A DNA stretch of 64,000 nt from Myxococcota bacterium (GCA_022710975.1 JAKLGA010000002.1:434001-498000); one strand, 5' to 3'; positions 37,219 through 52,767 are shown, counted from the stretch's first letter. Numbers and translations: made by a program. Notes: generated by a model from the letters alone, not told the origin.

Positions 37219-38142
37219 ATATACAGGCACTACAAGCTCGAGGCCGGGAAGATCGTGGACTCCCAGACGCCCGCGCAGGTGCTGGTGTGCGTCGCCCCGA
37301 CCGAGGCCGAGACACGGGAGCTGCTCGAGGTCCACAAGCTCGATCCCCACACGCTGCAATCGGCCCTCGACCCGGACGAGCAGGGCCGCGTGGAGTTCGA
37401 GGAGGACCACCTGGCGCTCATCATCCGGCGGCCGTGCAGCTACACCTCTGCCGACAACTACCTCTTCAAGGTCATGTCCGCCGGCGTGTTCCTGTTCAAG
37501 GACAAGCTGATCATCGTCATGGCCAAGGACGTACCCCTGTTCGAGGGCAAGCAGTCCGTCAAGCTGGTCAGCCTGCACGACGTGCTGCTGAAGCTCCTGC
37601 GGGTGGTCATCAACCACTTCATGGGCCACCTGCGGGTGATCAACCTGATCTCGGACGAGCTGGAGCAGAAGGCCAGCCACTCGGCCGAGAACAAGCACCT
37701 GCTGAACATGTTCACCCTGGAGAAGAGCCTGGTCTACTTCCTCAACGCGCTGAACGACAACGGCACGGTGGCCACCAAGCTCAAGAACAGCGCGGCCAAG
37801 ATCGGCTTCAGCACCGACCACGTCGAGCTGCTCGACGACATCGCCATCGACAACGCGCAGTGCCTCACCCTGGCCCAGACCTACTCGAACATCCTGTCGT
37901 CCCTCATGGACGCGCGCGCCTCCCTGGTCAGCAACAACCTCAACGTGATGATGAAGAACCTCAACGCCCTGGTCATCGCCGTGGCCGTGCCCAGCTTCTT
38001 CGCGGCCGTGGGCGGGATGAGCGAATTCACCCAGATGGCGGGGCCGGAGCGCTGGTACGTCGCCTACCCCGTCTTCCTGGGCGCCATGGGTGGCCTGGGG
38101 GCGCTCACCTACTGGATCGTCAAGCGACTCGAGCGGCACTAG
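37219..38142 (+). CDS. CorA-like divalent-cation transporter with apparent AUA start
   Basis: 307 residues if read from ATA 37219, which lies 7 bases after a strong GAGGAGGG (37204-37211) and gives an N-terminus xYRHYKLEAGKIV. The first ordinary start, GTG 37255, has no ribosome site and would remove that segment. The body fits CorA: helical cytoplasmic funnel (LLKLLRVVINHFMGHLRVI), then two C-terminal transmembrane helices. The GMN selectivity motif at the end of TM1 reads GMS (VGGMSEF), so Mg2+ selectivity may differ. Stop overlaps the convergent ion-channel gene by 4 bases. The ATA could also be a sequencing error for ATG. Confidence 0.8.
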   Translation: MYRHYKLEAGKIVDSQTPAQVLVCVAPTEAETRELLEVHKLDPHTLQSALDPDEQGRVEFEEDHLALIIRRPCSYTSADNYLFKVMSAGVFLFKDKLIIVMAKDVPLFEGKQSVKLVSLHDVLLKLLRVVINHFMGHLRVINLISDELEQKASHSAENKHLLNMFTLEKSLVYFLNALNDNGTVATKLKNSAAKIGFSTDHVELLDDIAIDNAQCLTLAQTYSNILSSLMDARASLVSNNLNVMMKNLNALVIAVAVPSFFAAVGGMSEFTQMAGPERWYVAYPVFLGAMGGLGALTYWIVKRLERH

Positions 38143-39233
38143 GCCAGCAGGGAGACCCACAGGCAGACGCTGACGAACAGCGCGGTCAGGGTGCCGAAGG
38201 AGCAGCGGTCGAGCAGGCGCGAGGTCTCCTCCCGCCCCTTGTAGAACAGGGCCAGGGAGATGGTCGACTCGACCAGGGTCAGCAGGATCACCACCATGGA
38301 GACCATGTGCAGCGCGTCCGCGGTGGAGATCACGTCCGAGTTGGGCAGGTGGCCGGAGATCACGTACTCGTTCGCCACCGAGGCGAACAGGGCCGCCGCG
38401 CCCAGCCCGAAGCGCGGGTCCAGGTCGGTCGGCCGGATCCACAGCGCCAGCAGCGCGATGGCGGTCGCCACGAACAGCGCGATCAGCAGCTTCAGGAAGT
38501 AGGTCACGCCCGCCCGGCGGAACTCCATGCTGTAGTTGAAGCGTGAGTAGACCGACTCGCTGCCCGTGGGCAGGCTCAGATCGCCGAAGTTCGAGCAGTA
38601 GCGGTGCTCGTCGACCGTGGCCTCGGTGCCGCCCAGCTTCCAGCCGGGCACCACGATGTTGGAGTCCATGGAGCAGTTGGCCACGTCCGCCACGTAGCGC
38701 AGGCGGTGGGCCTCGCTGTCCTTGTCCTCGAGCTGGATGTGGATGGCCTGGTCGTCGAAGGGGAACGCCCCCACGTCGAAGCTCTGCGTGGCCTCGATGG
38801 ACAGCTTGCAGGAGGCGTACTGCAGCCCGTCCCGCAGGCCGTGCTCGCTGCACTCCTTGGCGGCGATGCGGGCCCCGGGGATCTCGAAGGTCTCGGTCGG
38901 CTTCAGCTCGGGGTCGGACCAGTGGAACCAGACCCACACGTCGGCTTTGAAGCTGTTGTCGCGGATGCTCAGCGAGTACAGGTTGACCACGTACATGCCC
39001 ACCCGCACGTCCGCGGGCTTGCCCGGGGCGGACTCCCCGGCGGGCTGCGCCGGCGCCGCCTTGGCCGCGGGCCGGCAGGCCTCGCTGGCGGCCCGCCTGA
39101 GCGGGCTCGCCCGCGGGACCGTGGTCAGCCAGGCCGCGCCCAGCCCGAACAGCGTGCCGAGCAGCGCGCCGAGCAGGCCGGCCTTGGTGGCGCGCCAGCG
39201 GCGGCGCGAGGTCTGCAGGGCTTCGTCGGGCAT
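38139..39233 (-). CDS. Pentameric ligand-gated ion channel homologue (Cys-loop family)
   Basis: 364 residues. Start ATG has GGAGGAGGGG upstream. One N-terminal signal/anchor helix (about 18-40), then an extracellular ligand-binding domain: VGMYVVNLYSLSIRDNSFKA and WVWFHWSDPEL, and the conserved FPFDDQ loop. Four transmembrane helices: TYFLKLLIALFVATAIALL, FGLGAAALFASVANEY (pore-lining), MVSMVVILLTLVESTISLAL and TLTALFVSVCLWVSLLA. Channels of this type (GLIC, ELIC) are homopentamers gated by ligands or protons. Extra cysteines (AKECSEHG, YASCKLS, VANCSMDS, YCSNFGD) suggest disulfides outside. Last gene of the alpha-glucan operon, 27 bases after a lipoprotein gene. Confidence 0.85.
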   Translation of the reverse strand: MPDEALQTSRRRWRATKAGLLGALLGTLFGLGAAWLTTVPRASPLRRAASEACRPAAKAAPAQPAGESAPGKPADVRVGMYVVNLYSLSIRDNSFKADVWVWFHWSDPELKPTETFEIPGARIAAKECSEHGLRDGLQYASCKLSIEATQSFDVGAFPFDDQAIHIQLEDKDSEAHRLRYVADVANCSMDSNIVVPGWKLGGTEATVDEHRYCSNFGDLSLPTGSESVYSRFNYSMEFRRAGVTYFLKLLIALFVATAIALLALWIRPTDLDPRFGLGAAALFASVANEYVISGHLPNSDVISTADALHMVSMVVILLTLVESTISLALFYKGREETSRLLDRCSFGTLTALFVSVCLWVSLLA

Positions 39234-39260
39234 GCGTCCCCTCCTCCTGGTCGGACGGAC

Positions 39261-40205
39261 TCAGGGTAGCTTGAACTCGAGCCGCACCCAGCCCGCGCGG
39301 GTGGGCAGCGGCGCCTCGGCCGGCAGGTGCGCGCGCAGGCAGGCGGGCGTGGGCAGGCCGCGGCCGAGGCGCAGCGAGGCCACCCGGCCGGCCTGTACGT
39401 GCAGCTCCACCAGCACCAGCGTCGGCCGGACCTCCGCGGGCACGCCCGCGACGACCTGCTCCAGGCAGTCCAGCCAGCCCGGATCGCCGGCCAGGGCGGC
39501 CAGCCAGGCCGGCAGCTCCTTCTGGATGACCCAGGCCCCGGCCCGGCGCACGGTCAGCGCGTCGGCCACGCTCGCGCCGCGGGCGTCGCCGTCGCCCTCG
39601 GCCCCCAGGATCTTGAGCGTCCCGGCGGTCCCGGGCTCGACGCCCGCGGGTCCGGGCGCGTCCGCGGCCGGCTCCTGTTCTCCGAAGTCCCGCATCGCCT
39701 TGTGGCCGTGCAGGGGGCGCTCGCCCTTCTGCGCCGCTCGCTCCTCCTGGGGCGCGGGCGCGCGCGCCGCGCTGAGCCCCGCGCGCCAGCCGGCGATGCG
39801 CTCGGCCGAGGCCAGCTCCTCGGGGGTGAGCAGCCTGGCGATCTGCTCGGCCAGGCCGTCCCTGGCCGGCGGGGCGTCGAGCATCACCACGTCCCCCAGG
39901 CCCAGCTCGGTCTCCTCGTCCAGCCGCACCAGGTAGCCGTTCTTCAGCGCGAGCACGGTGAAGGCCCCGCCGGCGGCCACCCGCAGGCTGTCTCCGCGCA
40001 GCAGCTGCTCGCCGGGCCGGGCCTGGAAGGCGTAGCCGTTCGCGGCCAGGACCTGGGTCGGGCCGCCGAGCAGCAGCACCTCGGCCACCACCGGACCGGC
40101 GCCGGCCAGCGAGGGCCGGGCCACCTCCGGAGCGCCGCCGGACGAGGCCTGGCAGGCGAGCAGGAGCGCCAGCGGGCCGAGCGCGAGGAAGTGCTTGCGG
40201 ATCAT
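39261..40205 (-). CDS. FecR-like lipoprotein
   Basis: 314 residues with lipobox LLLAC (Cys18). Residues about 50-110 (QARPGEQLLRGDSLRVAAGG, ALKNGYLVRLDEETEL) follow the FecR-domain pattern, a small beta fold found in iron-signalling and many other envelope proteins. The middle is acidic/Ala-rich and disordered; the C-terminus (RPTLVLVELHVQAGRVASL) resembles AgmX/TonB-C strands. Role uncertain: perhaps a structural or sensing part of the glucan system, since it sits 33 bases downstream of the five-module lipoprotein and 27 bases upstream of the ion channel gene. Confidence 0.65.
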   Translation of the reverse strand: MIRKHFLALGPLALLLACQASSGGAPEVARPSLAGAGPVVAEVLLLGGPTQVLAANGYAFQARPGEQLLRGDSLRVAAGGAFTVLALKNGYLVRLDEETELGLGDVVMLDAPPARDGLAEQIARLLTPEELASAERIAGWRAGLSAARAPAPQEERAAQKGERPLHGHKAMRDFGEQEPAADAPGPAGVEPGTAGTLKILGAEGDGDARGASVADALTVRRAGAWVIQKELPAWLAALAGDPGWLDCLEQVVAGVPAEVRPTLVLVELHVQAGRVASLRLGRGLPTPACLRAHLPAEAPLPTRAGWVRLEFKLP

Positions 40206-40238
40206 GGTTCCACCCCCGTGGAGGCCCCGCCGCGGGCC

Positions 40239-42677
40239 TCACTGGACCGTCAAGGTCCCCTGATCCGACGGCAGGAACCCGTCCGGGGATCCGGCCCGAT
40301 CGCAGTAGCTCCAGGTCGCGCCGTTGTCGCCCGAGAAGCGGAACAGGAAACGGTAGACCCCGGCCTGGGCCGGCGCGGTCAGCGGCGCCTGGTACTCGTC
40401 GTTGTCGTCCTCGGTGTGGCCCGGGTTGTAGCCGGCCGCGAACCAGCTGAAGGCCCCGGGGTCCGCGGACGGATCGATCCCGTCCGGGCCCAGGCCCAGC
40501 TCCCCCCGCAGCCCCTGGCACCCGGCCGCCCCGGCCGTGCACTGGTCCACGAACACCCGCCCGAAGAAGTCCCCGGCCGGCTGGCCCGCCGCGAGGGTGA
40601 GCTCGGTGGGGAACTGCAGCCCGCACCAGCCGACGGTCCGATCGGCCGCGGTCAGCGCGCCCATGCGCTGGAAGTCAAAGCCGTTGTCCGTGCCGTCCAG
40701 GTCGCAGGCCGTCCAGGTGGTGCCGCCGTCGGTCGAGAAGCGGTAGGCGTAGGCGTAGGCGCCGTCCGCGGCCGGGGTGAGCCGGGCGGTGTACTCGTCG
40801 TTGTCGTCTCCGGTGTGGCCGGGGTTGTAGGTGGCCGCCACCCAGGCGTAGGCCTGCGGCACGTCCACCGGCGAGAGCGCCGGATCGCCCAGGCCCACCT
40901 CGGCCCGCACCGCCTGGCACTCCAGATCCCCCGTGCTGCACCCCTCGACGAACACGCGGCCGTAGATCGGCTCGCTGGGCAGGCCGGCCACGGTGCTGGT
41001 CGCGGCCGGGTGCTGCAGGATGCACCAGCCCACCGGCGGCGGCGCGGCGCCCACGCGCCACACCCCCTGCTGGCCGGGCTGGAAGCCGTTCAGCGAGCCG
41101 TCGAGATCGCAGTAGTGCCAGCGCGCGCCCCCGTCGGCGCTGAAGCGGTAGGCGTAGGCGTAGGTGCCGGCGCCGGCCGTGCTGAGGGTGCTCAGGTACT
41201 CGTCGTTGTCGTCGCCGGTGTGCTGGTCGTTGTAGGCGGCCGCCACCCACTGGAAGTCGCCGGGCGCGGACGAGGGATCCGCCCCCGCGGCGCCGAAGCC
41301 GAGCTCGGCGGTGACCTCCGCGCAGCGGGCCGCGCCGTCGGTGCAGCCAGCCGCGAACACCTGGCCGTAGACCGCGGGGCTGGCCTGCCCGGGCTCGGAG
41401 TCCATCTGCGCCGGCCACTGCAGGGCGCAGTAGGAGATGCTCACCGCGGCGGCCTGGACGGTGAGCGAACCCATCTCGGCGCGCTGGAAGCCGTCCGCGG
41501 AGCCGTTCCGGTCGCAGTAGGTCCAGCTCGCCCCGCCGTCCGCGCTGAAGCGGTAGACGTAGGCGAACAGCCCCTCGGCGGGCGGGGTGAGCGCGGCCAG
41601 GTACTCGTCGTTGTCGTCGTCGGCGTGGGCGGCGTTGTAGGCGGCCGCCAGCCACTCGAAGGCGGCCGGGTCCTGGGAGGGGTTCTCGGCCGGATCGCCC
41701 CAGCCGAGCTCGGCCTGGAGGGCGCCGCAGTGCGCCCCGCCCTCGGTGCAGCCGGCCGCGTACACCCGGCCGTAGATCGGCTCGGTGGACACGCCCGGGG
41801 CCACGCTGGTGGCCGCGGGCCAGTGCAGGCCGCACCAGCCGATGGTGACGTCCTGCGTCGCCACGGTCAGGGCGCCGAGTTGCCCGGCTTGGAAGCCGTT
41901 CGCCAGGCCGTCCAGATCGCAGTAGGCCCAGCTCGCGCCGCCGTCCACGCTGAACCGGTAGGCGTAGGCGTAGCTGCCCGCCGCGGGCACGCTCAGGCTG
42001 GCCTGGTACTCGTCGTTGTCGTCCCCGGTGTGCCCGGGGTTGTAGGCCGCCGTCACCCACTGGAAGCTCTGCGGCGCCTGGCTGGGATCGGCCCCCACCG
42101 CCCCGTAGCCCAGCTCGCCCTGCAGGAGGCCGCACTGGGCGCTGCCCTCGCTGCAGCCCAGCACCCACGCCCAGCCGTAGATCGGCTCGCTGGCCGTCCC
42201 GGGCGCGGCCTGGGTGGCGGCCGGGTGGTGCAGCCCGCACCAGCCCACCTCGGGGCGCTGCGCCTCCTGGTACTCGAAGCCGTCCGGCAGGCTGGCGCTC
42301 TCCCCGCCGGGGTTCTGCACCCGGACCGCCACCCGCCCGGGCGCGCCGGGGGCCGCGGGCGTGGTGGCCCGCAGCGCCGTGGCCGAGAGGTACTCGACGC
42401 CCGTGCCGGCGCTCGCGCCGAAGGACACGCCGGCCCCGGGCTGGAACCCGCGGCCGGTCAGCGTCACCAGGGTGCCGCCCTCGACCGGGCCGTAGGCCGG
42501 GTTGACCGAGAGCAGGGCGAGCACCACCTGCCCGTCGTCGCCGTCGCGGCCGTCGCCGTCCTGCCCGTCCGCGGCGTCACCGTCCCCGCCGTCGGTGCCT
42601 CCTCCGCCGCCGCCGTCGCAGCCCGCGCCCAGCAGGCTCACCAGACCCAGGATCATCGCCAGCCAGAGTCTCCGCAT
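40239..42677 (-). CDS. Lipoprotein with IPT/TIG domain and five copies of an unnamed ~125-residue module
   Basis: 812 residues from ATG 42677 (GAGG 8 bases upstream). Lipobox GAGC, Gly/Asp-rich linker, IPT/TIG fold (NPAYGPVEGGTLVTLTGRGF), then five tandem modules. Each starts (V/I)xxC-x-L-(H/Q)-x-P, has YGxVxxxxC, a YNxxHTxDDNDEY segment, then YAYxYRFSxDGGxxWxYCDxxG and xGF. The DDNDEY block suggests calcium binding and the aromatic-rich strands a sugar-binding surface. The module resembles starch-binding beta-sandwiches in spirit, but I cannot place it in a named family. Between two glucan genes, 14 bases after the amylase: candidate functional equivalent of SusE/SusF. Confidence 0.75.
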   Translation of the reverse strand: MRRLWLAMILGLVSLLGAGCDGGGGGGTDGGDGDAADGQDGDGRDGDDGQVVLALLSVNPAYGPVEGGTLVTLTGRGFQPGAGVSFGASAGTGVEYLSATALRATTPAAPGAPGRVAVRVQNPGGESASLPDGFEYQEAQRPEVGWCGLHHPAATQAAPGTASEPIYGWAWVLGCSEGSAQCGLLQGELGYGAVGADPSQAPQSFQWVTAAYNPGHTGDDNDEYQASLSVPAAGSYAYAYRFSVDGGASWAYCDLDGLANGFQAGQLGALTVATQDVTIGWCGLHWPAATSVAPGVSTEPIYGRVYAAGCTEGGAHCGALQAELGWGDPAENPSQDPAAFEWLAAAYNAAHADDDNDEYLAALTPPAEGLFAYVYRFSADGGASWTYCDRNGSADGFQRAEMGSLTVQAAAVSISYCALQWPAQMDSEPGQASPAVYGQVFAAGCTDGAARCAEVTAELGFGAAGADPSSAPGDFQWVAAAYNDQHTGDDNDEYLSTLSTAGAGTYAYAYRFSADGGARWHYCDLDGSLNGFQPGQQGVWRVGAAPPPVGWCILQHPAATSTVAGLPSEPIYGRVFVEGCSTGDLECQAVRAEVGLGDPALSPVDVPQAYAWVAATYNPGHTGDDNDEYTARLTPAADGAYAYAYRFSTDGGTTWTACDLDGTDNGFDFQRMGALTAADRTVGWCGLQFPTELTLAAGQPAGDFFGRVFVDQCTAGAAGCQGLRGELGLGPDGIDPSADPGAFSWFAAGYNPGHTEDDNDEYQAPLTAPAQAGVYRFLFRFSGDNGATWSYCDRAGSPDGFLPSDQGTLTVQ

Positions 42678-42691
42678 GGCTCTCACCTCGC

Positions 42692-44974
42692 TCAGCCCTG
42701 GCGCGCCTCGAGCGTGAGCTCGAGCGGTCCGGCGCCCTCGGGCACGTACACGAAACGGTTCTCACCCTGCTCCCAGCGCTCCCGCCCGTCCACCCCGCGC
42801 ACCACCAGCTTGAAGGCGTACACCTGGCTCGTGGGCAGCGCCACCGAGGCGCACAGGGCGTCCCCGCGCGGCGAGAGCGGCCCCAGGCCGCCGGCGGGCT
42901 GCCAGCCGCCCAGCTCGGGCGGGTTGCCCACCACCAGCAGGGTCTCCCCGCCGCCGAGCGCCGCGCCGCGCACCTGGATGTCCACCGCCCGGGCCGGTCC
43001 CGTCCCGGGTCGCGCGAAGGCGGCGAAGGCGCCGGGCGTGGCGGGCTCGAGCCTGAGCAGGCGCACCTCACCGGCCGCCAGGCCGGAGCGCGCGGACGCG
43101 GGCTCGCCGGTGAGCGCGTCCCTCACCCTGGACGCGGCCAGCGCCTCGGGCAGGGCGAAGTCCCGCCGCGCGCCGGCGGAGTTCACCAGCAGCACGAAGG
43201 CCTCGTCCGGCAGCGCGCGCAACACGGCCAGCAGCCCGTCCTGGTACAGCAGGCTGCGGGTCGCGCCCCGCACAAGGGCCGGGTGGGCAGCGCGCAGCGC
43301 CAGCATCCGGGCGATGAGCGCGCGCAGGCCGTCCGCCTCGGGGGCGCTGAAGGTCATGTCACCGCGGTTCTGGGGCTCCGGCCCGCCCTGCAGCCCGACC
43401 TCGGTGCCGTAGTTCAGGCAGGGCGTGCCGCGGAGGCTGAGCAGCGCGGTCAGCGCCCGCGCCACCCGCTCGAGCTCGCCGCCGCAGGCCGTGCGCACGC
43501 GCGGTACGTCGTGGTTGTCCACGAAGGTGACCAGCCGCAGGGCGTCGGTGTACAGGCGGTCGTCCGCCAGCACCGCCCCCAGCAGCCCGGCCGGCCGGCC
43601 GTCGCAGAACACGTCCCGCAGCGCGAAGGCCAGCGGGAAGTCGAACATGTGGGTGAAGGCGCCCCGCCGCCACACCTCGTCCACCGCGCGCGGCGAGCCC
43701 TCGTAGTGCTCGCCCAGCAGCGTGAGCCCGGGGCGCAGCGAGGCCAGCTCGTGGTTGTAGCGCCCCCAGAAGTCGAGCCCGACGTGCTTGACCGCGTCCA
43801 GGCGGAAGCCGTCCACCTCGAGCTCCACGAGCCAGCGCCGGGCGGCGGACAGCAGGTGGGCGTGCACCTCCGGGTTCTCCTGGGCGAGATCCGGCAGCCC
43901 GTGCACCTCGCGCCGCACGAGCTGCACCGGATCGTCCCAGTCCTGGATGGTGCCCTCGTGGTGGAACCAGGCCGGGCGCTCGGCGACCAGCGGGGCCTCG
44001 TAGCCCACGTGGTTCACCACCCAGTCGAGCAGCACCCGCAGGCCGCGCCGGTGCGCCTCGGCGACCAGCGCGCGCAGGGCCCCCTCGCCGCCGAAGCGGG
44101 GGTCCACCCGGCCGAGGTCCTCCACCCAGTAGCCGTGGAAGGCCCCGTGGCCCATGAAGTCCGCCGCGCGGCCCTGGAACACCGGCGACAGCCACAGGCT
44201 CTTCACCCCCAGGGCCTGGAGCCAGTCGAGGCGCGCGCGCACCCCCTGCAGGTCGCCCCCGTGCCAGCCGGCCGGATCGGCGGGCGCCACGCCCCGATCG
44301 TTGGCCGGCTCCCCGTTGGCGAAGCGGTCCACCAGGATGAAGTAGATGGCGTCGGCCCCGGCCGCGCCCGGCGCGGCGGCCGGGGCGGGCGCCTGGATGG
44401 CACGGCCCGGCTCCAGCCGGCCGCCGAAGTAGTCGTCGGCCAGCGAGCCCACCCGCTTGGCCAGCGCCTCGGCGGCGGCGGTGAGCGCCGCGGGCTCCCG
44501 CTGGTGGGCGAAGCTCAGCACCACCGGCAGCTCGAGGCTCTGGCCGAGCGCGGCCGCCTCGGCGCCCCGCTCGGCCAGCGACAGCTTGGCGTACACCGTC
44601 CAGCGGAAGCTGCCCGAGAGCTGGGAGTAGAACACCACCTGGGTCTCCACCAGCAGCAGCGCCTCGGCCTGCGGCTCGGCCGCGGCCAGGAGCTCCAGCC
44701 GGCGGGTGGTGTCGCGCACCCGGCCGAAGTCCGCGAGCGCCGCCTCGGGCAGGTGGCTGGCCACCAGGTTGCGCTCGGCCAGCGCCGCGTCCAGGCGGGC
44801 GCGGAGCTCCTCCGGGGCCGGCAGCGCGGCCTTGCGGTGCACCTCGTCCATGACCACGGCCACGGCCACCCGGGTGGGCCGGTCGAGGCGCACCACCTCG
44901 GCCGGCCGCAGGCAGGCGGCCAGCCCGAGCAGGCCCAGGCACACGGGGAGCAGCGTACGGCGGGTGGTAGCCAT
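42692..44974 (-). CDS. GH13 alpha-amylase lipoprotein with C-terminal CBM20-like domain
   Basis: 760 residues from ATG 44974, which shares its A with the porin stop (TGATG). Lipobox LAAC. Residues 30-200 form a separate N-terminal domain (CsgG-like in layout, not identified). The GH13 barrel then shows IYFILVDRFANG, LLDWVVNHVGYEAP, GFRLDAVKH (nucleophile Asp), LLGEHYEGS (acid Glu) and TFVDNHDVPR (third Asp), so all catalytic residues are present. Cuts alpha-1,4-glucan. C-terminal about 100 residues (VVGNPPELGGWQPAGGLGPL, KLVVRGVDGRERWEQGENR) match a CBM20-like starch-binding domain. Outer-membrane anchored, third hydrolase of the operon. Confidence 0.9.
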   Translation of the reverse strand: MATTRRTLLPVCLGLLGLAACLRPAEVVRLDRPTRVAVAVVMDEVHRKAALPAPEELRARLDAALAERNLVASHLPEAALADFGRVRDTTRRLELLAAAEPQAEALLLVETQVVFYSQLSGSFRWTVYAKLSLAERGAEAAALGQSLELPVVLSFAHQREPAALTAAAEALAKRVGSLADDYFGGRLEPGRAIQAPAPAAAPGAAGADAIYFILVDRFANGEPANDRGVAPADPAGWHGGDLQGVRARLDWLQALGVKSLWLSPVFQGRAADFMGHGAFHGYWVEDLGRVDPRFGGEGALRALVAEAHRRGLRVLLDWVVNHVGYEAPLVAERPAWFHHEGTIQDWDDPVQLVRREVHGLPDLAQENPEVHAHLLSAARRWLVELEVDGFRLDAVKHVGLDFWGRYNHELASLRPGLTLLGEHYEGSPRAVDEVWRRGAFTHMFDFPLAFALRDVFCDGRPAGLLGAVLADDRLYTDALRLVTFVDNHDVPRVRTACGGELERVARALTALLSLRGTPCLNYGTEVGLQGGPEPQNRGDMTFSAPEADGLRALIARMLALRAAHPALVRGATRSLLYQDGLLAVLRALPDEAFVLLVNSAGARRDFALPEALAASRVRDALTGEPASARSGLAAGEVRLLRLEPATPGAFAAFARPGTGPARAVDIQVRGAALGGGETLLVVGNPPELGGWQPAGGLGPLSPRGDALCASVALPTSQVYAFKLVVRGVDGRERWEQGENRFVYVPEGAGPLELTLEARQG

Positions 44975-46484
44975 CAGAACCAGGCCTCCGCTTCCAGGGA
45001 GATGACCGAGTGCCAGCGACGATCCTCGCTCTCGGGGAACTCGTCGTACTGGTCCAGGCTCTCGACGAACGAGTTGCCGAAGGCGTTGTGCATGTTCGAC
45101 CACTGCAGGCCGTACAGCAGGCGGATGGACGGCCGGGTGAAGATGCCCTGGCCGGTCGGGTTGAGCACCAGGCCGGCCTTGAGCTGCCAGGTGTCGCGCT
45201 GGTCCAGATCGCCGAACTGGAGCCCGCGCTGGTCGGCGATGCCGTCCTGGCTCTGGAAGATCGAGTCGTGGTGCCCGCGCCACAGGTTGCCGTTCAGCGA
45301 GCGCTCCTGGGCGAAGGAGGACTCGGTCAGCCAGTGCAGGGTGTCGGTCAGGTAGAGCTGGAAGCGCCCGACCACCGACCAGTACAGGCGGTTGTCCTCA
45401 CCTGCGGCCACGGAGTTGTCCGCGTTCCAGTGGTAGCCCACCAGGCAGGCGGCGGTGAGATCCAGCCAGCCGGGCACCAGGGTGAGCTGCAGCTCGTCGC
45501 CCGCGTTGATCTGGTAGCGCTGGTCGGTCAGGTCGTGCAGGTAGATGTGGTAGTCCACCCCCTGGAAGCTCTCGGTCCTCACGCTGTCGGGCAGCTGCCG
45601 CAGGAAGTTCACGTACAGGTTGTTCCAGCGGAAGAAGCCCCAGCCACCGAAGCCCAGGTAGGCCACCGCCTTGAAGGCCAGGCCGGGGACCGGCTCGGGC
45701 TTGGGAAACTGGTCGAGCTGGCCGGGGAACAGGTCGTCGAAGGTCTCGACCACCTCCCCGCGCCAGTACTCCTCGTAGCCGATGCCGGCGGGCAGCACGG
45801 TGCGGTGCGGCCCGTTGCGGTTGCCCTCGACCTCCGGCTCGTAGAAGAACTGGCCGCCCAGGCCGATCTCCAGGCCCTGCGCGGGCTTCAGCTTCACGCT
45901 GCCGCCCACGCTGAGCACGGTCGAGTAGGCGCTGCCGCGCACGGGATAGCCGGCGTCGCCGAAGCCCACCAGCACCTCCACCACCGGGTGTTGCCACAGG
46001 GCCGAGAGCCCGAGCGTCTCCCAGAACAGCTCCGCCGGACGCATGTCGTACAGCCCCAGGTCCCCGAAGTAGGTGTGCAGCGTGCCGAGCTGCCAGATCA
46101 CGTCCGGGAACAGCACGTTGCCGGCCTTCACGTAGAGCTGGCTCAGGCCGAACTGGCTGAGCGAGCCGTTGTGCTGATCGGCGCCGCGCACCGAGCCGCC
46201 CTCGAGCTTGGCGTGCACGCTGGTCCAGACCGCGTCCGAGCCGGGCTCGGGCGGCAGGACGTCGAGCTTCAGCTCCAGCGCCCCCCAGGGGCCCTCGTTG
46301 AGCAGCCGGCCCGACAGGTTCCACAGGCCCAGCCGGCTCCAGCCGCCCTCGAAGTCCGGGCGGGCCATGATGCGGAAGTAGCCGGCCGCGCTGAAGCGAT
46401 CACGGCTGGCCTCGGCCCGGACGAGCGCCGGGGCCGCCAGCAGGCAGGCCAGCGCCAGGGCCAGGGTGCGCGGGAGGGAGCGGT

Positions 46485-46488
<4 letters not shown>
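44974..46488 (-). CDS. Maltoporin-like outer-membrane barrel
   Basis: 504 residues from GTG 46488 (GTGA overlap with the debranching-enzyme stop). Signal peptide LALALACLLAAPALVRAEA. The remainder is amphipathic strands with many Gly/Tyr/Trp and ends in LEAEAWF; a terminal Phe is the outer-membrane barrel recognition signal. Motifs such as AGYFRIMARPDFEGG, FDDLFPGQLDQFP and DTLHWLTESSFAQE are compatible with LamB-type maltodextrin porins but the identity is low, so the specificity is inferred from operon position between two glucan hydrolases. No TonB box is seen, so diffusion rather than active transport is likely. Confidence 0.75.
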
Positions 46489-48890
<2,402 letters not shown>

Positions 48891-48904
48891 CGACAGCCTC
48901 CTGG

Positions 48905-51478
48905 TCATCGGATCACCCACACCCCCGCGGTCCGGCCGGGCAGCTCCACCTGGAGGGCGCCGGCCTGCACGCTCGCCTCCGCTGCCGTGAGGACCTCGTC
49001 GAGCGTCGCCCCGTCCGCGAGCCCGAGCGCGCCCACATCCAGGGAGCGGCTGCGGGCCTCCGGGGCCCGGTTCAGCGCCACCACGACCAGGTCGTCCCCG
49101 CTCTCCAGGGCGTAGGCCCACAGCAGCCGGTCCCCGTCGAGCAGCAGCGTGCTCCGGGTGCCCGCGCGCATGGCCGGGTGGACGCGGCGCGCCGCGAGCA
49201 GGCGCTGGACCGCCTCCAGGGTGGCCTGCTGGGCCGGGCTCAGCCCGGGGGCGAACTGCATCATCCGCCGGTTGTCGGGATCGCCCGCGCCGGGCACGCC
49301 CAGCTCGTCGCCGTAGTAGATGAGCGGCACGCCGGGCGAGGTGAGCAAGAAGGCCCAGGCCAGGCGCAGGCGCTGGAAGGGCCCCTCGTCGGCCGGCAGC
49401 CCGGGCGGGTCCGACCAGCCCTGCTCCTTGCCGCCGTTGCACCACATGTCGCCGAACTCCCCCGCGGCGTGGGACAGGGCGCGGCACACGTCGTGGTTGC
49501 CCAGGAAGGTGCTCATGATCGCGAACTCGCCGTACCGGCCGTCGTTCTCGCGCAGCATGCCCTCGAGGGCGCCGAGGTCGCGCTCCTCGCGCAGCAGCAC
49601 CGACAGCGTCTGCCAGTAGAGGGGGAAGTCGAACTGCCCGTCCAGCATGTCCGGGCCGATGTAGCGCCCGAGCAGGTCGAACTCGCCCTCGCCGGTGAAG
49701 GTCTCGCCCACCATGTAGAAGCGCTCTCCGGTCATGCGCAGCCGCTCGGACACGCGCCCGCGCAGCTCCAGCACGAAGTCGTCGATCATGTGCTTGACCG
49801 CGTCGAGGCGGAAGCCGTCCACGCCGGTCTCCTCGATCAGCCACACGGCGTGCTCGACCAGCGCGGCCAGGGCCGCGCCGTTCGTGTAGTCGAGGTCCGG
49901 CAGGTAGGGGGCGAACCAGCAGGTGATCGGCCGCGCCCAGTCGATGTCCTGGCACACCTCGACCGGCTGGTAGAACCAGGCCGGCTGGTCGGCCTGGTGC
50001 TGGCTCCACAGCGGGCTGTCCTGGTGCACGTGGTTGGCCACCAGGTCGACCAGCACCCGCAGGCCACGGGCGTGTGCCACGCGCACCAGCTCCTGGAACT
50101 CGGCCAGGCTGCCGAAGTGGGGATCGACCGGCAGCACGCCCGGGAGCGGGGCGTCGCCGCGCCAGCCGGTGGAAATGGGCCAGTAGGAGTGGTAGCCGGC
50201 CGAGCTGCGGTTGAAGTCGCCCACCCAGCCCCCGGCCGTGTTCTGGCTGATCGAGGACAGCCACAGGGTGTTCACCCCCAGCGCCTCGAAGTAGCCCTGC
50301 TCGACGGCCTGCCGCAGCCCGGCGAAGTCGCCGCCCTGCCAGTTGGCCTTGGGATCCACCCCGGCCACCGGGGCGTCGTTGGCCTGGTCGCCGTTCAGGA
50401 AACGATCGGTGAGCGCGAAGTACAGCACCGCGTCGCGCCAGTCGAAGGGCGCGGCGTCCTCCCCCGCGGCCACCCACACCGGCACGAACAGGCGCTCGGC
50501 CTGGCGCCCGGCCGCATCGGCCGCCGCGAGGTGGTAGAGGTGCTTGCCGGCCGGGAGCGCGCCCTCGTCCACCCGCAACACGCCGCTCGTGCCGTCCCAG
50601 GCCAGCGCGGCGGGGTCCACGGGCAGGCCGTCGCGGGTGACCCGCACCCCGTCCGGGCCCAGGCCGGCCGCGGCCGCCCCGTCCAGGTACTGGACGGCGA
50701 AGCGCGCCCTGCCGGCGCGCCCGTCGGGCCGGCCGAGCAGCCACAGCAGCGGGCGCTGGCAGTCGGGCACGCGCAGCCGGGAGTTGCGCTCTCCGCCCAC
50801 CCACCGGTGGAACGGGTTCCCGGGATCCTCGAACCAGCGCTCGCCCGCCGGGCTGAAGAGCTTGTAGGCGTACTCGCCCGCGGCGAGCTGCAGGTCGAGC
50901 GAGAAGCGCCCGTCCGCCCCGTGCGTCATGGGGTGGGTCAGGCCCCAGGCGTTGAACTCGCCGCGCACGTACAGCTCGGCGAAGGCCTCGGCGCCCGGAT
51001 CGAAGACCACGCGCGCGGCGCAGGTGCGGGTACCGGCCAGCAGCGGCAGCCCGGACGAGTCGTCGCACGGCTGGCTCGCCAGCGTGGGCGCGCCCGCGAG
51101 CGCGGCGGCGCAGGTGGGCCAGCAGGCGCCGTCGCCGTCGAGATCCTGGGCGTCCGCGTCGCAGGCGCAGGTGTGGCCGCCGGCGCCGTCCGGCGCGCAC
51201 ACGCCCCGCTGGGGCTCGGTGCAGGGGTTGGGCTGGCAGGGATCGGGGCCGTCGGGCAGGCAGTCGTCGCCCTCGCGGTGGTAGCCCGCCTCGCAGCCAC
51301 CGCAGCGCTCGCCCTGGTAGCCCGCGTCGCACAGGCAGGCCTCGCGGCCCTGGACGATCACGCAGGTGCCGTGCTCCGTGCACGCGAGCTCGCAGGGCTG
51401 GTCCGGGGTGTCCCCGGGGCAGCCGGACAGCCAGGCCGCGGTCGCCGACAGCAGGGCCAACGCCAGGTAAGTCCTCAT
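48905..51478 (-). CDS. EGF-repeat GH13 alpha-amylase lipoprotein
   Basis: 857 residues. Lipobox WLSGC (Cys20). Residues about 28-125 hold EGF-like units (CTEHGTCVIVQGREACLCD, CQPNPCTEPQRGVC) and a Cys-rich end. Then a CBM48-like carbohydrate domain (YVRGEFNAWGLTHPM) and the GH13 barrel: YFALTDRFLNGDQ, LVDLVANHVHQDS, GFRLDAVKH (nucleophile), MVGETFTGEG (acid), FLGNHDVCR (third Asp). The catalytic set is intact. First gene of the seven-gene operon, directly behind the promoter at 51521-51549. Probably makes the first cut in external starch at the surface. EGF-like repeats on a bacterial amylase are a lineage-specific display feature. Confidence 0.9.
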   Translation of the reverse strand: MRTYLALALLSATAAWLSGCPGDTPDQPCELACTEHGTCVIVQGREACLCDAGYQGERCGGCEAGYHREGDDCLPDGPDPCQPNPCTEPQRGVCAPDGAGGHTCACDADAQDLDGDGACWPTCAAALAGAPTLASQPCDDSSGLPLLAGTRTCAARVVFDPGAEAFAELYVRGEFNAWGLTHPMTHGADGRFSLDLQLAAGEYAYKLFSPAGERWFEDPGNPFHRWVGGERNSRLRVPDCQRPLLWLLGRPDGRAGRARFAVQYLDGAAAAGLGPDGVRVTRDGLPVDPAALAWDGTSGVLRVDEGALPAGKHLYHLAAADAAGRQAERLFVPVWVAAGEDAAPFDWRDAVLYFALTDRFLNGDQANDAPVAGVDPKANWQGGDFAGLRQAVEQGYFEALGVNTLWLSSISQNTAGGWVGDFNRSSAGYHSYWPISTGWRGDAPLPGVLPVDPHFGSLAEFQELVRVAHARGLRVLVDLVANHVHQDSPLWSQHQADQPAWFYQPVEVCQDIDWARPITCWFAPYLPDLDYTNGAALAALVEHAVWLIEETGVDGFRLDAVKHMIDDFVLELRGRVSERLRMTGERFYMVGETFTGEGEFDLLGRYIGPDMLDGQFDFPLYWQTLSVLLREERDLGALEGMLRENDGRYGEFAIMSTFLGNHDVCRALSHAAGEFGDMWCNGGKEQGWSDPPGLPADEGPFQRLRLAWAFLLTSPGVPLIYYGDELGVPGAGDPDNRRMMQFAPGLSPAQQATLEAVQRLLAARRVHPAMRAGTRSTLLLDGDRLLWAYALESGDDLVVVALNRAPEARSRSLDVGALGLADGATLDEVLTAAEASVQAGALQVELPGRTAGVWVIR

Positions 51479-51549: not shown

Positions 51550-51591
51550 GCACGCGTGGCAGGGGGTATCCTGCACGCCAGGAGGCCCCGC

Positions 51592-52767
51592 GTGGTCAAG
51601 CCCCGGACCGCCCGCGAGTACGAGGCCGAGATCTCCGCCCTGCGGCTGGAGCTCGAGTCGCTCAAGACCAGCCAGACCGTGGTGGTGTCGGGCGCCTCCT
51701 CCTCCACCGGCAGCCAGGATGGCACCCTGAGCGGCGCCGAGGAGATGATCCTCCAGGTGGCGCTCGACAACACCATCGACTACGTCAACGCCCAGATGGC
51801 GACCCTGCTGGATCTCCCCGACCGGAGGGCGGCCCTGGGCACGCCGCTGCGGCAGTGGGACCGCGGCCCGCTGGGCGAGGGAACGCTCACCATGGTGGTC
51901 GAGGTGGCCCGGCTGACCCCTCAGGCCCACGTGGTGGAGCGGAGCTTTCCCGGGCTACCCCCCGCGCGCCTGCCCGGCTCGGACAACCCGCGGCCCGCGG
52001 TGGATCCCATCCTGCGTTTCCGAGCCCAGGCCACGGAGGGCCGGGTGCAGCTCGTGGCCCAGGACGTGACCCGGGTGCGCTGGCTGGAGCAGACCTTCTC
52101 GCGCTACGTCTCGCCCGCCATCATCGAGCAGATGCTGTCGCTGCCCGCCAGCCGCTTCATGAGCATGGAGCGGCGCGAGGTGACCGTCCTGTTCGGCGAC
52201 CTCAGGGGCTTCACCAACCTCTGCCAGCACCTGGCCCCGGAGCAGGTCCAGGAGATGATCAACTCCTTCCTGGGCGAGATGGTGCAGGCCATCGAGGGCC
52301 TGGACGGCACGGTGGACAAGTTCGTGGGGGACGAGGTGATGGCCATCTTCGGCGCGCCCGTGCCCCAGCCGGACCACGCGCTGCGGGCGATGGTGTGCGC
52401 GGCCGAGATGCAGCGGCTCAACCGAGGGTGGATGCAGCGCCGCGAGGCCGCCGGCCTGCCCGCCCGCCCCGTGGGCATCGGGCTGGCCTCGGGCCCGGCC
52501 GTGGTGGGCAACGTGGGCAGCCCCCACCGGCTCGACTACACCGTGCTCGGGCACACGGTGAACCTGGCCTCCCGGCTGTGCAACGCGGCCGAGGGGAACG
52601 AGACCCTGACCAACGAGGCCACCCACCAGGCCGCCCAGGCCGCCCTGCCCGCGCGCGCCTTCAAGCAACCCGTGCCGCGCATGCACTTCGAGCCCAAGGG
52701 CGAGATGACCTTCAAGCACGTGGACGAGCCGGTGAAGGTGATCGCGGTGTCGGTGAAGCCGGGCTAG
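51592..52767 (+). CDS. Class III adenylate/guanylate cyclase with N-terminal sensory region
   Basis: 391 residues from GTG 51592 (AGGAGG 6 bases upstream); a GTG at 51556 lacks one. A helix (REYEAEISALRLELES) and a small PAS-like region (TIDYVNAQMATLLDL) precede the cyclase, which starts after TFSRYVSPAIIEQML. Metal-binding Asp residues occur in VLFGDLRGFT and KFVGDEVMAIFGAP, and GPAVVGNVGSPHR/YTVLGHTVNLASRL complete the fold, so it is probably active. cAMP versus cGMP is not decided. No transmembrane helix, so cytoplasmic. Divergent from the alpha-glucan operon with only 113 bases between them, so a regulatory link is possible but unproven. Confidence 0.9.
   Translation: MVKPRTAREYEAEISALRLELESLKTSQTVVVSGASSSTGSQDGTLSGAEEMILQVALDNTIDYVNAQMATLLDLPDRRAALGTPLRQWDRGPLGEGTLTMVVEVARLTPQAHVVERSFPGLPPARLPGSDNPRPAVDPILRFRAQATEGRVQLVAQDVTRVRWLEQTFSRYVSPAIIEQMLSLPASRFMSMERREVTVLFGDLRGFTNLCQHLAPEQVQEMINSFLGEMVQAIEGLDGTVDKFVGDEVMAIFGAPVPQPDHALRAMVCAAEMQRLNRGWMQRREAAGLPARPVGIGLASGPAVVGNVGSPHRLDYTVLGHTVNLASRLCNAAEGNETLTNEATHQAAQAALPARAFKQPVPRMHFEPKGEMTFKHVDEPVKVIAVSVKPG

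What the first reader, a model, noticed from the sequence alone, without database searches (positions are those of the whole stretch)
38139..51478. Seven-gene surface alpha-glucan operon built from lipoproteins and a porin
Seen: one promoter and seven minus-strand genes with gaps or overlaps of at most 33 bases: GH13/EGF lipoprotein, GlgX-type debranching lipoprotein, maltoporin-like barrel, GH13/CBM20 lipoprotein, five-module lipoprotein, FecR-like lipoprotein, ligand-gated channel. Three hydrolases have intact catalytic residues and lipoboxes. Known: Bacteroidetes use SusC/SusD/SusE/SusF/SusG for the same task. Inference: this is a Sus analogue made from unrelated parts, with debranching moved to the surface. 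No SusC/SusD pair is present.
Basis: partly seen in the sequence, partly recalled or inferred. Interest (0 to 1): 0.65.

Follow-up and report, generated by a model that had tools for sequence, protein, structure and literature searches.

The report
Myxobacterial maltoporin–lipoprotein alpha-glucan uptake operon
A row of bacterial genes codes for enzymes that cut starch- or glycogen-like sugar chains and for a matching outer-membrane pore; its core recurs across the myxobacterial phylum next to a maltose importer, so it is best read as that phylum's sugar-chain uptake system, with a previously unnamed small protein domain almost always made together with the pore.

Summary
The seven minus-strand genes are real, but they are not one conserved unit. 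The core is GlgX-type lipoprotein – maltoporin-fold porin – lipoprotein carrying GH13/CBM20. It recurs in order across Myxococcota: the GlgX gene lies upstream in 66 of 76 testable loci and the GH13 gene downstream in 68 of 73. In 24 of 44 fully flanked loci, including M. xanthus, a maltose ABC transporter (MalK, MalE-F fusion, MalG) lies alongside. The window's genome has that transporter on another contig. The five-gene order g1–g5 is shared by close relatives. g6 and g7 (pLGIC) accompany the core in none of 56 loci. AlphaFold gives an 18-strand barrel whose best PDB matches are maltoporin and sucrose porin. No SusD family exists in the genome.

The function is therefore maltodextrin/alpha-glucan uptake. 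It works more like the Klebsiella mal/pul arrangement than like Sus. Surface display is plausible but unproven.

Two things were missed at the first stage. The porin's stop overlaps the start codon of the next lipoprotein in 73 of 77 loci. That lipoprotein carries an unnamed ~155-aa domain in 74 of 78 proteins, free or fused to GH13. In five loci an exact A10 run breaks the frame at that fusion point, and one extra base restores it, so slippage-controlled expression is a candidate.

The parts
48905..51478 (-). g1: lipoprotein, EGF-like repeats, weak CBM48-type (AMPK1_CBM) domain, GH13 amylase with intact triad
   Evidence: co-directional g1-like GH13 upstream of the core in 15 of 80 loci
46485..48908 (-). 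g2: GlgX/isoamylase-type debranching lipoprotein (CBM48 + GH13), intact triad
   Evidence: (TIGR02100 E 1e-136, below equivalog cut-off); separate clade from GlgX proteins without signal peptide
44974..46488 (-). g3: maltoporin-fold 18-strand outer-membrane porin, GTG start, C-terminal Trp-Phe
   Evidence: Pfam LamB E 2.9e-7 and 17 of 20 homologues; AlphaFold pLDDT 89; Foldseek top five = maltoporin and sucrose porin
42692..44974 (-). g4: lipoprotein = unnamed porin-partner domain + GH13 amylase + CBM20
44429..44893 (-). porin-partner domain of g4 (residues ~28-182), no Pfam, NCBIfam or PDB relative
   Evidence: HMM found it in 74 of 78 porin-coupled proteins
42734..42961 (-). CBM20 starch-binding domain of g4
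   Evidence: Pfam PF00686 E 2.1e-9
40239..42680 (-). g5: lipoprotein, TIG domain plus five ~133-aa all-beta modules
   Evidence: directly downstream of g4 in L141, L142, L157 and after the partner gene in L150
41853..42254 (-). first g5 module, Ig-like beta sandwich
   Evidence: AlphaFold pLDDT 95.8; Foldseek mixed: sulfite oxidase Ig domain, then starch-binding CBM21 and N-domains of GlgE/MalZ
39261..40205 (-). g6: lipoprotein of unknown family; homologues often sit beside CHASE2-adenylate cyclases; probably not part of the system
   Evidence: 0 of 56 cassette loci
38139..39233 (-). g7: pentameric ligand-gated ion channel (GLIC-like); probably not part of the system
   Evidence: 0 of 56 cassette loci

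Best explanation
An envelope-spanning maltodextrin (alpha-glucan) uptake system of Myxococcota. Outer-membrane lipoproteins (GlgX-type debranching enzyme, GH13 amylases with starch-binding domains, a multi-module accessory lipoprotein) bind glycogen or starch, cut the branches and shorten the chains. The resulting linear malto-oligosaccharides pass through an 18-strand maltoporin-fold barrel. A MalE-F/MalG/MalK ABC transporter, encoded elsewhere in this genome and next door in many relatives, takes them into the cell. The barrel is translationally coupled to a lipoprotein with a dedicated ~155-aa domain, which in this window carries the amylase. That coupling implies (inference) a porin-lipoprotein complex that holds the enzyme at the pore. 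g6 and g7 are a local addition downstream. Shown: gene order, domains, predicted fold, conservation, gene overlap. Inferred: surface exposure, physical complex, substrate (prey or environmental glycogen/starch).
For: Catalytic triads and lipoboxes intact. Porin: LamB Pfam hit, 18-strand AlphaFold model, maltoporin and sucrose porin as best structural matches. The g2-g3-g4 order is conserved in Myxococcota. The maltose ABC transporter is adjacent in relatives (24 of 44 fully flanked loci) and present in the own genome. Five-gene order g1-g5 in L141, L142, L157. Overlapping porin stop / lipoprotein start in 73 of 77 loci. The codon before Trp-Phe ends in A in 45 of 76 loci against 5.7 expected from the same genes' own codon use (not corrected for kinship). 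Partner domain in 74 of 78 coupled proteins. None of the lipoproteins has the +2 Lys that marks inner-membrane retention in M. xanthus (rule from PMC3222651).
Against: Surface exposure has no direct support. In relatives the separate GH13 is sometimes a lipoprotein, sometimes has a plain signal peptide and sometimes none, so its location is not strictly conserved. T2SS GspD is present but no GspN. MalEFGK is not adjacent in the window. GlgX-type enzymes usually act on short branches, and the true substrate is not known. The partner domain's fold is unknown.
Confidence: 0.72

Rival explanations
1. The lipoproteins face the periplasm: short branched or linear dextrins made by other secreted amylases enter through the porin, and g2/g4 trim them in the periplasm (as E. 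coli MalS does) before the ABC transporter.
For: Lipobox alone does not give surface display; some relatives carry the GH13 with a plain signal peptide (L177, L210, L212); no GspN and no known surface-lipoprotein signal.
Against: A GlgX-type debranching enzyme and CBM20 fit polymeric, branched substrates that cannot pass a maltoporin; EGF-fused GH13, GH31 and GH57 lipoproteins elsewhere in this genome look like exposed enzymes.
Confidence: 0.27
2. A true SusCD-like machine: porin and partner lipoprotein form a tight lid-and-barrel complex that actively handles long glucans.
For: Nearly invariant overlap of porin stop and lipoprotein start, partner domain in 74 of 78 coupled proteins, fusion of that domain to the amylase.
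Against: No TonB-dependent barrel, no plug, no SusD family; the partner domain shows no relation to known folds by profile.
Confidence: 0.2
3. All seven genes are one functional unit, with g6 and g7 sensing alpha-glucan products or membrane state.
For: Same strand, gaps of 33 and 27 nt, no strong terminator.
Against: 0 of 56 cassette loci contain g6 or g7 relatives; in L157 the operon continues from g5 into MalK; in L141 no g6 start lies in the 191 nt after g5; g6 kin occur with CHASE2 cyclases instead.
Confidence: 0.12
4. The cassette remodels the cell's own surface or matrix alpha-glucan rather than feeding.
For: Many members are in social, matrix-forming myxobacteria; lipoproteins could act on own exopolymer (own knowledge, not tested).
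Against: Adjacent maltose ABC importer in 24 of 44 fully flanked loci points to uptake.
Confidence: 0.06

Closest known systems
Klebsiella pullulanase/maltose regulon (PulA surface lipoprotein, LamB, MalEFGK)
   Same: Debranching GH13 enzyme as lipoprotein, maltoporin-fold pore, maltose ABC transporter (PMC7857515, PMC12802150; mal genes from own knowledge)
   Different: GlgX/isoamylase-type rather than PulA-type enzyme; porin coupled to a lipoprotein with an unnamed domain; amylase fused to it; MalE and MalF fused in relatives; GspN not found
Bacteroidetes Sus system (SusCDEFG)
   Same: Same task; several glucan-binding/cutting lipoproteins in one operon; multi-module accessory lipoprotein reminiscent of SusE/F
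   Different: No SusD family in the genome, no TonB-dependent barrel; pore is a diffusion-type maltoporin fold
LamB / sucrose porin family (PF02264)
   Same: 18 strands, Pfam and Foldseek match
   Different: ~12% identity to solved members; trimerisation and greasy slide not checked
GlgX / isoamylase (GH13_11), e.g. TreX, isoamylase 1BF2
   Same: CBM48+GH13, triad
   Different: Lipoprotein, below the GlgX equivalog cut-off, own clade

Membership tests
Sus starch-utilisation system | SusC-type TonB-dependent barrel | tested here: not met
   The barrel is LamB-fold
Sus starch-utilisation system | SusD lipoprotein lid | tested here: not met
   PF07980 absent from the whole genome; control Bacteroides rings
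Sus starch-utilisation system | Surface GH13 amylase lipoprotein (SusG-like) | tested here: inconclusive
   GH13 and lipobox present; location not testable
LamB sugar porin family | Sequence profile match | tested here: met
   PF02264 31.2 bits against cut-off 25.1; 17 of 20 homologues at E <= 0.01
LamB sugar porin family | 18-strand barrel | tested here: met
   18 long strands in the AlphaFold model, maltoporin best match
LamB sugar porin family | Homotrimer and aromatic greasy slide | not tested
   No multimer job; identity too low to map residues safely
mal/pul type maltodextrin uptake | Maltose ABC importer linked or present | tested here: met
   Adjacent in 24 of 44 fully flanked loci; own copy at G000:C3 ~36.1-40.6 kb
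mal/pul type maltodextrin uptake | T2SS with GspN for surface lipoprotein export | tested here: inconclusive
   GspD present, GspN not found by Pfam
GlgX/isoamylase GH13_11 | CBM48 + GH13 with intact triad | tested here: met
GlgX/isoamylase GH13_11 | NCBIfam GlgX equivalog score | tested here: not met
   456 bits against cut-off 640.9: family member, not GlgX equivalog
pentameric ligand-gated ion channel (g7) | pLGIC ligand-binding and channel domain homology | tested here: met
   PF02931 just over cut-off; GLIC match E 1e-9
FecR family (g6) | FecR domain profile | tested here: not met
   No Pfam hit for g6 or four homologues
LptE-like lipoproteins (partner domain) | Profile similarity | tested here: not met
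   3 of 54 members weak Pfam LptE hits, but hhalign probability 1.5%

The most novel reading that the evidence does not exclude
A previously undescribed lipoprotein domain is the dedicated, stoichiometric partner of a maltoporin-fold barrel throughout Myxococcota. It docks glucan hydrolases at the pore and makes a porin-lipoprotein uptake device distinct from both Sus and mal. In several lineages a conserved A10 tract at the domain junction produces, by transcriptional slippage or -1 frameshifting, both the free partner and the partner-amylase fusion from one gene.
Probability: 0.4. Interest if true: 0.72.

Novelty: new variant of a known kind. Interest (0 to 1): 0.55.

Why it matters
It gives a testable, phylum-wide explanation of how predatory and soil Myxococcota could take up glycogen and starch, an ability known only as counts of amylase genes in the papers I could search. 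The constant lipoprotein partner of the porin, its overlapping gene start and the A10 junction are clean genetic handles. If the complex is real it would be another independent solution to feeding polysaccharide products to an outer-membrane pore, between simple maltoporins and Sus-type transporters.

Tried and rejected
Seven-gene unit: rejected for g6 and g7. FecR for g6: no profile support. LptE fold for the partner domain: weak Pfam hits in 3 of 54, not supported by hhalign. A GC-rich hairpin between g5 and g6 is not unusual for its composition (z -0.93). Rfam: nothing. A promoter scan was uninformative. Glucan specificity of the g5 module is not shown: single copies occur in other large proteins of the genome and its best fold hits are mixed. 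Papers on M. xanthus porins, vesicles and transporters did not mention a maltoporin, and CAZyme surveys mentioned no such operon.

Full report
WHAT IS THERE. The seven minus-strand genes between 38139 and 51478 are real ORFs with tight spacing. g1 is an EGF-repeat lipoprotein with a GH13 domain. g2 is a CBM48-GH13 lipoprotein of GlgX/isoamylase type. g3 is an outer-membrane protein ending in Trp-Phe. g4 is a lipoprotein with GH13 and CBM20. g5 is a lipoprotein with one TIG domain and five ~133-aa modules. g6 is a lipoprotein without a recognised family. g7 is a pentameric ligand-gated channel close to GLIC. The catalytic Asp-Glu-Asp triads of g1, g2 and g4 are intact. The claim of one promoter could not be confirmed: the scan shows no minus-strand site, and by eye there is only an 8/12 extended -10-like site upstream of g1.

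THE PORE. Pfam LamB matches the last third of g3 (E 2.9e-7, above cut-off) and 17 of 20 homologues. An AlphaFold model on 64 sequences (mean pLDDT 89) has 18 long strands. The first five Foldseek matches in the PDB are maltoporin and sucrose porin, ahead of AlgE and others. This is a maltoporin-fold barrel, not a SusC-type TonB-dependent one. SusD is absent from the whole genome.

CONSERVATION. The porin occurs in 68 of 195 Myxococcota genomes and the GlgX-type protein in 74 at E<=1e-100. A genome-contig scan gave 80 loci, with titles pointing to Myxococcota or loosely named 'delta'/proteobacterial MAGs. Around the porin, the GlgX gene is immediately upstream on the same strand in 66 of 76 testable loci (63 by the script plus three with overlapping ends). 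The GH13 gene is downstream in 68 of 73. A g1-like GH13 lies co-directional upstream in 15 loci. L141 and L142 (about 60% porin identity) have the full order g1-g2-g3-g4-g5, and L157 has it followed by MalK and the MalE-F fusion. None of 56 loci longer than 15 kb contains g6, g7 or the flanking CorA and cyclase genes. In L141 no g6 start lies in the 191 nt after g5, where the contig ends. g6 kin sit beside CHASE2-adenylate cyclases elsewhere. So g1-g5 are the system, g2-g3-g4 its core, and g6-g7 local.

THE IMPORTER. In M. xanthus (L181) the core is divergent from genes for MalK (ABC + OB_MalK), a solute-binding-protein/permease fusion and a second permease. The binding-protein/permease fusion is found in 24 of 44 loci with full flanks, usually with MalK and MalG, upstream divergent or downstream co-directional. 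The window's genome carries the trio on another contig (G000:C3). This ties the cassette to maltodextrin uptake better than any single gene does.

PORIN AND PARTNER (not in the original finding). In 73 of 77 loci the gene after the porin starts by overlapping the porin's stop, usually with the start codon inside the terminal ...(A/G)TGG TT(C/T) stop sequence. The base before that Trp codon is A in 45 of 76 loci, where the same amino acids' codon use in the same genes predicts 5.7, so a start codon appears to be selected there (the rows are related, so the P value is not to be taken literally). The window itself uses the neighbouring TGATG. The coupled protein is a lipoprotein with a ~155-aa domain (window g4 residues ~28-182) in 74 of 78 cases. 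In about 40 it is fused to GH13 (usually with CBM20); in about 30 it stands alone, and the GH13 is then usually the next gene. Some loci have the partner and no GH13. The domain has no Pfam or NCBIfam family and no PDB relative. LptE similarity was tested and not supported. A domain that is nearly always made with the pore, and is fused to the enzyme in many lineages, is most simply a docking partner. That step is inference.

A10 JUNCTION (not in the original finding). In L147, L155 and L010 (related genomes), L140 (a near relative of the window) and L148 (cattle-colon MAG), an exact run of ten A lies at the partner/GH13 junction. As written, the frame ends 3-14 codons later and gives a 198-225-aa lipoprotein. 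One extra A (or a -1 frameshift) gives the partner-GH13 fusion (745-781 aa where complete), the same direction in all five. The four of these loci that belong to L139-L218 hold the only A/T runs of ten or more in those 1.35 Mb. Bacterial transcriptional slippage on such runs is documented (PMC1088944). Phase variation or assembly error cannot be excluded. The window's own g4 is fused without such a run.

LOCATION. The lipoproteins lack the +2 Lys that marks inner-membrane retention in M. xanthus (PMC3222651), so outer-membrane anchoring is likely. Which face is unknown. GspD is present and GspN not found; GspN/PulN is what sends PulA to the surface in Klebsiella (PMC12802150). Separate GH13s in relatives have lipobox, plain or no signal peptides. 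A separate GlgX without signal peptide persists elsewhere in the genome in another clade.

JUDGEMENT. The system works like a maltose/pullulanase-type alpha-glucan uptake route assembled from myxobacterial parts. It is not a member of Sus (SusC and SusD tested, not met). The g5 modules are Ig-like beta sandwiches (pLDDT 95.8), with starch-binding domains among, but not on top of, the structural matches. Novelty lies in the arrangement, the lipoprotein GlgX clade and above all the porin partner; hence a new variant of a known kind.

Noticed in passing
L147:12080, L155:12026, L140:4110, L148:12421 (and L010 at +573 after the porin): Exact A10 runs at the junction of the porin-partner lipoprotein domain and GH13; the frame stops soon after, and one extra base restores a full fusion in all five. 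Candidate programmed slippage or -1 frameshift.
   Followed up: partly
L166, L167, L168, L202, L207, L172, L189, 0.5 kb after the porin stop: GH13 begins exactly at the partner gene's stop (GTGA, TTGA, or in-frame TGA-TTG) without a signal peptide; unclear whether it is cytosolic, reinitiated or read through.
   Followed up: partly
G000:C7 ~90-101 kb (L223): Second alpha-glucan locus in the same genome: MFS transporter, EGF-GH31 lipoprotein, a classical LamB porin (E 1e-26) and a GH13 lipoprotein.
   Followed up: partly
G000:C7 ~40.5-47.4 kb (L222): Two adjacent proteins with EGF repeats fused to GH57 and to GH13 (52% identical to g1): EGF-tagged glucan hydrolases as a class.
   Followed up: partly
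window 39261-40205 and L129, L132, L133, L134: g6 homologues lie beside CHASE2-adenylate/guanylate cyclases, suggesting an unnamed lipoprotein partner family of these cyclases.
   Followed up: partly
window 51556-52767, plus strand: Class III adenylate/guanylate cyclase gene divergent from g1, only about 80 nt apart; not conserved with the cassette.
   Followed up: no
Genome contigs records CAMAWH010000021.1, CAMASI010000018.1, CAMCWU010000062.1, BNCN01000001.1: Records titled Klebsiella pneumoniae or Comamonas carry this myxobacterial cassette; the titles look mislabelled.
   Followed up: no
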